A DNA stretch of 64,000 nucleotides from Methanohalobium evestigatum Z-7303. Lineage in GTDB: Archaea > Halobacteriota > Methanosarcinia > Methanosarcinales > Methanosarcinaceae. Position numbers and translations under genes: made by a program. Positions 45,105-53,791 of this stretch are shown piece after piece. The number at the start of each line of letters is the position of its first letter. Positions within the stretch are counted from its first letter, which is position 1. The stretch is taken from contig NC_014253.1 of NCBI RefSeq assembly GCF_000196655.1, positions 1,319,423 through 1,383,422 of the forward strand, written 5' to 3'. The notes below the pieces were generated by a model. The model saw only the letters and a list, made by a program, of their open reading frames with translations. It made no database searches and was not told the DNA's origin.

Positions 45105-45245
45105 GTAAAGTCGTTGGCTTTCACGTACCCCTGTTGCCCCACTTTCGTAAACTTTTAATTTGTAACAAATGTTTTACAAAAAACGATTCCAGTTTAAATT
45201 TATATTATCAATAGCTATAAATTAAACCGTACATATTAAAAATTG

Positions 45246-45890
45246 ATGCCTAAGATTGAACCCTTTGACAAATATTACCAAAAATACGAAAACTGGTTTG
45301 AAAAATATAAATTTGTATATCTGTCAGAGTTGGAGGCAATTAGGAATTATATTCCCCATAAATAGGATGGAATAGAAATTGGAATAGGTACTGGAAGATT
45401 TGCCAAACCTTTAGGTATTGAAGAAGGTGTTGAACCCTCATATAATATGGGAAAAATAGCTAAAAGTAGAGGAATTAAAGTATATAGTGGAACAGCTGAA
45501 GAACTGCCATTGAATAATAATAGTTATGATTTTGTATTAATGGTGACTACTTTATGTTTTCTTGATAATTTAGAGAAGTCCTTTTCGGAAGTCTACAGAA
45601 TTTTAAAAGAACATGGACGCTTTATTATTGGATTTATAGATAAAGACAGTCCTATAGGCAAAAAATATCTTGAATCTAAAAACGAAAGTACATTTTATAA
45701 ACACGCTGATTTTTATTCGACTGATGATGTCCTACGTTTATTGAAAAAATTCAATTTTAAGGATATTGATGTATTACAGACCATATTTGGAAATCCAGAA
45801 GATATCAAAGATATTCAAGAATTTAAAAGAGGATATGGAGAAGGCGTTTTTGTAGTTGTCGTTTCTGAGAAACAGGGAGGTATTCGATGA
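45246..45890 (+). CDS. SAM-dependent methyltransferase with in-frame TAG at codon 40
   Basis: 214 residues if TAG at 45363-45365 is read through. The N-terminus MPKIEPFDKYYQKYENWFEK, the helix before the amber, and SAM motif I (EIGIGTGRFAKP) just after it form one coherent class I methyltransferase. Starting after the amber would lose motif I. The frame continues through GTAEELPLNNNSYDFV and RILKEHGRFIIGF to TGA. Pyrrolysine insertion is a plausible explanation in this Pyl-using organism; a nonsense mutation is the alternative. It overlaps the J-domain gene by 4 bases. Confidence 0.75.
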
Positions 45891-52867: not shown

Positions 52868-53060
52868 AATTGACAGCAGAGGTAGAGAATGAGGGAAAAC
52901 TCTACATCTGTTTGAAAGTAGTGGACGAGCGAATTTAATGATTGAGTGGGGTTCAACCATCGGGAGATGTGGTTAAAGTAGTCAATATAGGCTTATCCGC
53001 CCAATCTGTGTTATTCGGGGGAGTTATCACAGTTTGGGTGGTTAATATGAATCTTTCTTG
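52868..53060 (+). ncRNA. Candidate structured non-coding RNA
   Basis: In an AT-rich gap, this G-rich stretch follows a TATA-like run (52832-52850). Helices by eye: CAGA-GTAGAG (52877-52887) with CTCTAC-TCTG (52900-52910), one mismatch inside; a GGGA-capped hairpin (52955-52974); and a 14-position helix 52997-53010 with 53028-53041 (13 pairs, one of them wobble). Stops interrupt the frames. It does not match RNase P, SRP or tRNA as far as I can tell. Ends and strand are inferred. Confidence 0.55.
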
Positions 53061-53251
53061 TGATATCTACACCCAGTAACTTATGATTTTTATATTTTAT
53101 ATAGTTTTTATGCTTTATCTGTAGTATTAATAAATTTTTATGTAAAAGAGCTAAATATATAATCATAATTTAAAAATATAATTTACTCTGTTACTGGTTT
53201 ATAAAGATAAAACTTTAAATTAGCCACACTTGTTTTAGTTAGGGAACAAAA

Positions 53252-53791
53252 ATGGATGAGAATAACTAGGAAAATGATAATAATTCAGATATGGCAAATA
53301 ATGTAGAAAAAATAAGTTACCATTTAGAAGAAATAGAAAAAACATTAGGTATTAAACCTCGCAGGGATTTGGCCATTGAAAACTGCCTGATGAGATAGCA
53401 CATCAATGGTTACTTTAAATTAAGAGACAAATATGGAAAACTTGAGATTGTAGAAATCACAGAAAAAGGCTATAACCATTTAACCAATAATGAATTAATA
53501 AATGAACCATCCCTTATACAAGAACTGGATGAACGAAGGGAAAAACTGGTAAATTATAAACCATTCTGGATACGAATCAACGAGCTTTTAGAAGCCGGAA
53601 TTATACCACAGGAAACCGTGGAAAGTTTAAAATCCTATCAATTGGATCCGATGGATATAGTCAACTTAATGGCTACCACCCCTACTGGTATTCATGATGT
53701 AACTGAATTAACAAAAAATGATATAGTTGAGACCACTTTAAATAAAGAGGAAGTAGACGAAATCTACAGAATTGCTAATCTGGATTCTTGA
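53252..53791 (+). CDS. Unknown protein with two in-frame TAG codons
   Basis: From ATG 53252 the frame runs 180 codons to TGA with two ambers, codon 6 (53267-53269) and codon 49 (53396-53398), and no other stop. The sequence reads as one protein: VEKISYHLEEIEKTLGIKPRR before the second amber, a wing-like HINGYFKLRDKYGKLEIVEI after it, and a helical C-terminus with WIRINELLEAGIIP. A winged-helix DNA-binding domain is possible. GGGAAC lies before ATG. Pyrrolysine coding is plausible; a decayed gene with two ambers only is less so. Confidence 0.6.

What the first reader, a model, noticed from the sequence alone, without database searches (positions are those of the whole stretch)
53252..53791. 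Gene with two in-frame amber codons hidden in an apparent intergenic gap
A 180-codon frame is interrupted only by TAG at codons 6 and 49; TAA and TGA are absent, although in such AT-rich DNA they should be common. The residues on both sides read as one protein with a possible winged-helix part. Two pyrrolysines in one non-methyltransferase protein would be unusual and of a kind not known to me.
Basis: seen in the sequence. Interest (0 to 1): 0.85.

Follow-up and report, generated by a model that had tools for sequence, protein, structure and literature searches.

The report
Small archaeal gene with two pyrrolysine codons
A small methanogen gene of unknown function is interrupted twice by the codon UAG, which this organism evidently reads as the rare amino acid pyrrolysine rather than as a stop; the frame is kept intact in a sister species, so this is a real hidden gene and a further example of an amber-as-sense methanogen, not a new kind of decoding.

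Summary
Window 53252-53791 is a 179-codon frame (ATG to TGA) with TAG at codons 6 and 49 and no TAA or TGA. It lies in a Methanohalobium genome (by size probably M. evestigatum) that carries PylRS and tRNA-Pyl(CUA).

A sister Methanohalobium MAG holds the same frame: 92% amino-acid identity, no indels, both TAGs kept, dN/dS 0.27. For codons 50-122, which follow the second TAG and have no in-frame start codon, dN/dS is 0.16 (P=0.0015 against neutrality). A same-length paralogue without TAG exists in both genomes and aligns over codons 53-126. Decay is therefore rejected, and TAG49 must be read through.

TAG is nearly vacated as a stop here: 4 of 329 sampled genes, and three of those four are themselves interrupted genes (mtmB, mtbB, an IscB-like gene). 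A SAM methyltransferase in the same window also carries an in-frame TAG.

Best reading: UAG serves as a pyrrolysine sense codon in this genus, and this is a genus-restricted protein, perhaps winged-helix, with two Pyl residues. Shown: one protein-coding frame across TAG49. Inferred: that the residue is Pyl, that translation starts upstream of TAG6, and the DNA-binding function. It is a new member of a known kind.

The parts
53252..53791 (+). Read-through ORF, 179 codons plus TGA; genus-restricted protein with two in-frame TAG
53267..53269 (+). TAG codon 6, in an Asp/Asn-rich N-terminal tail; TAG in the sister species too; translated only if the start is ATG1 (53252)
53396..53398 (+). TAG codon 49, in the predicted helix before a beta-hairpin; TAG in the sister species too
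53399..53617 (+). Codons 50-122: purifying selection (dN/dS 0.16, P=0.0015) although no ATG/GTG/TTG lies in frame between TAG49 and GTG123
53408..53629 (+). Codons 53-126, homologous to the TAG-free paralogue (33% identity, BLASTP E=2e-9)
53198..53206 (+). TATA-like element TTTATAAAG about 50 bp before ATG1; expected transcript start near 53227 (inference from sequence)
   Evidence: conserved in the sister; 53201-53251 has 1 difference in 51 against 12.3% in 53071-53200

Best explanation
The stretch is one functional gene. Its two UAG codons are sense codons, read by the PylRS/tRNA-Pyl(CUA) pair as pyrrolysine, in a genus where UAG has nearly disappeared as a stop. The product is a 179-residue, genus-restricted protein (tail, probable recognition helix plus wing, helical C-terminus), a divergent paralogue of a TAG-free 179-residue protein, most likely a DNA-binding regulator or accessory protein. 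No PYLIS-like hairpin is needed: UAG decoding is general here, and the two TAGs most likely arose by neutral substitution. Shown: the frame, its selection across TAG49, the Pyl machinery, the rarity of TAG stops, and other genes with in-frame TAG. Inferred: that Pyl is the residue, the start at ATG1, and DNA binding.
For: Sister Methanohalobium MAG (91-92% protein identity) keeps length, frame and both TAGs with no indels. dN/dS is 0.27 overall, 0.25 for codons 50-179 and 0.16 for codons 50-122 (P=0.0015); neighbouring genes give 0.07-0.22 at similar dS. No in-frame ATG/GTG/TTG occurs between codon 49 and codon 123. TAG-free paralogue in both genomes. PylRS and tRNA-Pyl (anticodon cta) lie side by side in the genome; PMC9499178 states M. 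evestigatum has pylTS and pylBCD clusters. TAG ends 4 of 329 greedy ORFs of at least 100 aa in 400 kb; three continue in frame as MtmB, MtbB and an IscB-like protein, and the fourth looks like a transposase fragment. The Methyltransf_11 gene at 45243-45890 has TAG at codon 41 where ungapped homologues carry variable sense residues. Coding potential after TAG49 matches real genes.
Against: No peptide or RNA evidence. TAG conservation between the two species says little, since about 92% of all codons keep their residue. No homologue outside the genus shows which residue TAG replaces; in the paralogue the alignment at codon 49 is uncertain. No PYLIS-like fold after either TAG (z -0.27 and +1.09, against -4.33 for mtmB), but PYLIS is not required (PMC9499178). 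Translation could start at ATG14 and skip TAG6.
Confidence: 0.85

Rival explanations
1. Only TAG49 is decoded. Translation starts at ATG14 (53291), so the protein has 166 residues and one pyrrolysine; TAG6 lies in the 5' leader.
For: ATG14 is in frame after TAG6; codons 1-13 are Asp/Asn-rich and too short to show selection; the region before ATG1 has no strong Shine-Dalgarno match.
Against: The TATA-like element and the strongly conserved 53201-53251 fit a start at ATG1; ATG14 has no Shine-Dalgarno-like sequence; codons 1-48 score as coding (0.39); 53252-53290 has 1 difference in 39 in the sister.
Confidence: 0.25
2. A regulatory switch: full-length protein is made only when pyrrolysine is available, so the two ambers couple a regulator to methylamine metabolism.
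For: Two ambers early in the frame, both kept in the sister; a possible DNA-binding fold (low confidence).
Against: Ambers also occur in an IscB-like gene and a SAM methyltransferase, so neutral gain suffices; TAG is nearly vacated as a stop, which suggests constant Pyl supply; codon conservation is no higher than for other codons.
Confidence: 0.06
3. A decaying gene whose ambers are ordinary nonsense mutations.
For: The gene is genus-restricted with no family match, and TAG normally means stop.
Against: Two separated species share an intact frame with no indel, TAA or TGA, with dN/dS 0.27 overall and 0.16 after TAG49.
Confidence: 0.03
4. Two short separate genes flank TAG49, the second using an unusual start codon.
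For: Archaea can use rare starts; ATG47 and TTG40 lie just before TAG49.
Against: No ATG/GTG/TTG in frame from codon 50 to 122, although that stretch is the most constrained and matches the paralogue; the paralogue is a single 179-residue ORF.
Confidence: 0.04

Closest known systems
Methanosarcina tRNA-His guanylyltransferase Thg1 with pyrrolysine (Heinemann et al. 2009, cited in PMC8211752 and PMC4153887)
   Same: Non-methyltransferase archaeal protein with an in-frame UAG explained by neutral evolution in a Pyl-decoding methanogen
   Different: Conserved enzyme family; the gene here is genus-restricted, of unknown function, and has two UAG
The 16 predicted Pyl proteins of 'Ca. Methanomethylophilus alvus' (PMC4153887)
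   Same: Many unrelated proteins with in-frame TAG in a genome with 1.6% TAG stops; here 4 of 329 sampled ORFs, mostly not real stops
   Different: Different order; those were found through outside homologues, and Table 7 as read does not give the number of TAGs per gene
Methylamine methyltransferases MtmB, MtbB, MttB
   Same: In-frame UAG in the same genome; mtmB is in this window (TAG codon 202)
   Different: There Pyl is in the active site and mtmB has a PYLIS element; here no such structure and no catalytic role is evident
Archaeal all-TAG pyrrolysine code (recalled: Kivenson et al., Science 2025; not in the library, not checked)
   Same: General decoding of TAG as Pyl explains this gene without local signals
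   Different: Whether Methanohalobium was included could not be checked
TAG-free Methanohalobium paralogue (L004 and L010, 179 aa)
   Same: Same length, homologous over codons 53-126, both species
   Different: No TAG; its N-terminus carries five cysteines (possible metal site) where this protein has an Asp/Asn-rich tail

Membership tests
Pyrrolysine-containing protein | Genome encodes PylRS and an amber tRNA-Pyl | tested here: met
   PylS C-terminal model 366.6 bits at C1:298792-299508; tRNA-Pyl (cta) beside it
Pyrrolysine-containing protein | Coding frame under selection on the far side of the TAG | tested here: met
   Codons 50-122 dN/dS 0.16, P=0.0015; no alternative start
Pyrrolysine-containing protein | Homologues with a sense residue at the TAG position | tested here: inconclusive
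   TAG-free paralogue only; alignment is secure from codon 53 on. No homologue outside the genus
Pyrrolysine-containing protein | Pyl found in the protein by mass spectrometry | not testable with these tools
   No proteome data available
PYLIS-dependent recoding (mtmB type) | Stable hairpin directly downstream of the TAG | tested here: not met
   z -0.27 (TAG49) and +1.09 (TAG6) against -4.33 for mtmB; no Rfam match at this locus
Winged-helix DNA-binding protein | Helix, recognition helix, two-strand wing, following helix | tested here: inconclusive
   Model shows H38-51, E55-60, E63-69, H71-78 but mean pLDDT 48 (62-70 in residues 41-70, 57 in 71-80); best PDB matches E about 1, including some winged-helix proteins
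Winged-helix DNA-binding protein | Match to a curated family | tested here: not met
   No significant Pfam, NCBIfam or PHROGs hit
Pseudogene | Loss of frame or relaxed selection | tested here: not met
   No indel, TAA or TGA in the sister; dN/dS 0.27

The most novel reading that the evidence does not exclude
The two ambers form a pyrrolysine-availability switch: a DNA-binding regulator completed only when pyrrolysine is present, with Pyl49 in the DNA-recognition helix, linking methylamine metabolism to gene control.
Probability: 0.05. Interest if true: 0.85.

Novelty: new member of a known kind. Interest (0 to 1): 0.45.

Why it matters
It is a gene that standard annotation would probably miss or cut in two, and its selection pattern is clear comparative evidence that UAG is read through in an ordinary, non-methyltransferase gene of Methanohalobium. 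With the near absence of genuine TAG stops in the sampled 400 kb, it supports amber as a general pyrrolysine sense codon in this genus, and it provides a small test protein with two predicted pyrrolysines far from any corrinoid chemistry.

Tried and rejected
Pfam, PHROGs, NCBIfam and PDB sequence searches gave no family. Homologues were sought in 112 Methanosarcinaceae genomes, 23 further genomes of the order, one scan of GTDB species contigs and one of viral contigs: only the two Methanohalobium genomes. The weak match to a 754-residue ORF (E about 0.002) did not recur with the profile search and was dropped. Foldseek on both low-confidence models gave no significant match. PYLIS-like folding downstream of the TAGs was not found. 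A first codon comparison used the wrong strand of L002 and was discarded. The query had a mistaken N-terminal stretch of about 14 letters that matched nothing; only the aligned part is used. The Science 2025 all-TAG paper was sought and not found.

Full report
WHAT IS THERE. Window 53252-53791 (+) is a single frame from ATG to TGA of 179 codons with TAG at codons 6 and 49 and no TAA or TGA. The window lies at 1,319,423-1,383,422 of a 2,242,317-base contig in a 2,406,232-base genome. The sister record is titled Methanohalobium sp., and by size the genome is probably M. evestigatum (inference). Random sequence of local composition never gave such a run in 3000 trials, and codon usage after TAG49 is that of real genes.

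SELECTION. The sister MAG has the same frame with 31 changed codons, 16 synonymous, no indel and both TAGs. dN/dS is 0.27 for codons 1-179, 0.25 for 50-179 and 0.16 for 50-122; simulated neutral change gives so few amino-acid changes with P=0.0005, under 0.0005 and 0.0015 respectively. Neighbouring genes have dN/dS 0.07-0.22 at similar dS. Codons 1-48 alone have too few changes (5) to test. Since no ATG, GTG or TTG lies in frame between codon 49 and codon 123, the most constrained segment can be translated only by passing TAG49. TAG6 is less certain because ATG14 follows it; a TATA-like element at 53198-53206 and the conserved 50 bp before ATG1 favour ATG1.

RELATIVES. A TAG-free paralogue of the same length, 179 residues, is present in both genomes and aligns over codons 53-126 (33%, E=2e-9). 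No other relative was found in 112 Methanosarcinaceae genomes, in a scan of GTDB species contigs or in viral contigs.

GENOME CONTEXT. PylRS and tRNA-Pyl (anticodon cta) are adjacent at about C1:298.8-300.3 kb; the literature gives pylTS and pylBCD as separate clusters in M. evestigatum (PMC9499178). In 400 kb around the window, TAG ends 4 of 329 greedy ORFs of at least 100 aa (6 of 322 when each 20-kb stretch is treated alone). Three of the four are interrupted genes: MtbB (TAG 356), MtmB (TAG 202, in this window) and an IscB-like protein whose TAG stands where three 92-93% identical paralogues have Gln. The fourth looks like a transposase fragment. Small samples of other genera gave 1.4 to 16.4% TAG, so low TAG use is not unique to Methanohalobium. 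The sister MAG sample has 17 of 529, several of them apparent true stops with a second stop close behind, so TAG may still end some genes there. In this window a Methyltransf_11 gene, 45243-45890, has TAG at codon 41 in an ungapped alignment with homologues at 46-53% identity that carry variable sense residues there.

MECHANISM. Best reading: UAG is decoded by Pyl-tRNA in competition with, or largely instead of, termination, without a local signal. The stretches after both TAGs lack the stable fold seen after the mtmB TAG, and PYLIS is not required (PMC9499178). A neutral origin of the ambers, as proposed for Thg1 (Heinemann et al. 2009, cited in PMC4153887) and suggested by the Gln-to-TAG difference in the IscB-like gene, is the simplest history. 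The protein function is a guess: the model places residue 49 in a helix followed by a beta-hairpin and an ITEKG helix, as in winged-helix domains, but confidence is low.

COMPARISON AND NOVELTY. Reviews name transposases and Thg1 as the other known Pyl proteins besides methyltransferases (PMC8211752), and 16 more were predicted in Ca. M. alvus (PMC4153887). The 2013 genome-wide prediction that included M. [quoted passage not shown] I recall a 2025 report of an archaeal code with all TAG as Pyl; it was not available here. The case is a new member of a known kind; two Pyl in one small protein is its unusual point, and that rests on the start codon.

Noticed in passing
window 52875-53056 (+): A conserved RNA-like element of about 180 nt just upstream of the gene, with at least 7 dispersed copies in this genome and 7 in the sister MAG and none found in 110 other Methanosarcinaceae genomes. 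Consensus fold has three helices, 6 of 34 pairs with compensatory change; no Rfam match. Possibly a new Methanohalobium non-coding RNA family.
   Followed up: partly
window 45243-45890 (+): SAM-dependent methyltransferase (Methyltransf_11) with an in-frame TAG at codon 41, just before motif I; homologues in the family are open there. A second non-methylamine Pyl candidate in the same window.
   Followed up: yes
genome C1:1287147-1288376 (-), in L021: IscB-like gene with TAG at codon 313; three paralogues 92-93% identical have Gln there and the rest of the frame is intact.
   Followed up: partly
genome C1:1191336-1192502 (+), L016: Possible HEAT-repeat protein with TAG at codon 10; the true start may lie after the TAG.
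   Followed up: no
L127 (G027) and G065:C1:599102-599704: Homologues of the 45243 methyltransferase in another genus (g3) are themselves reported with 1 and 2 in-frame TAG, so amber-as-sense genes may be common across the family.
   Followed up: no
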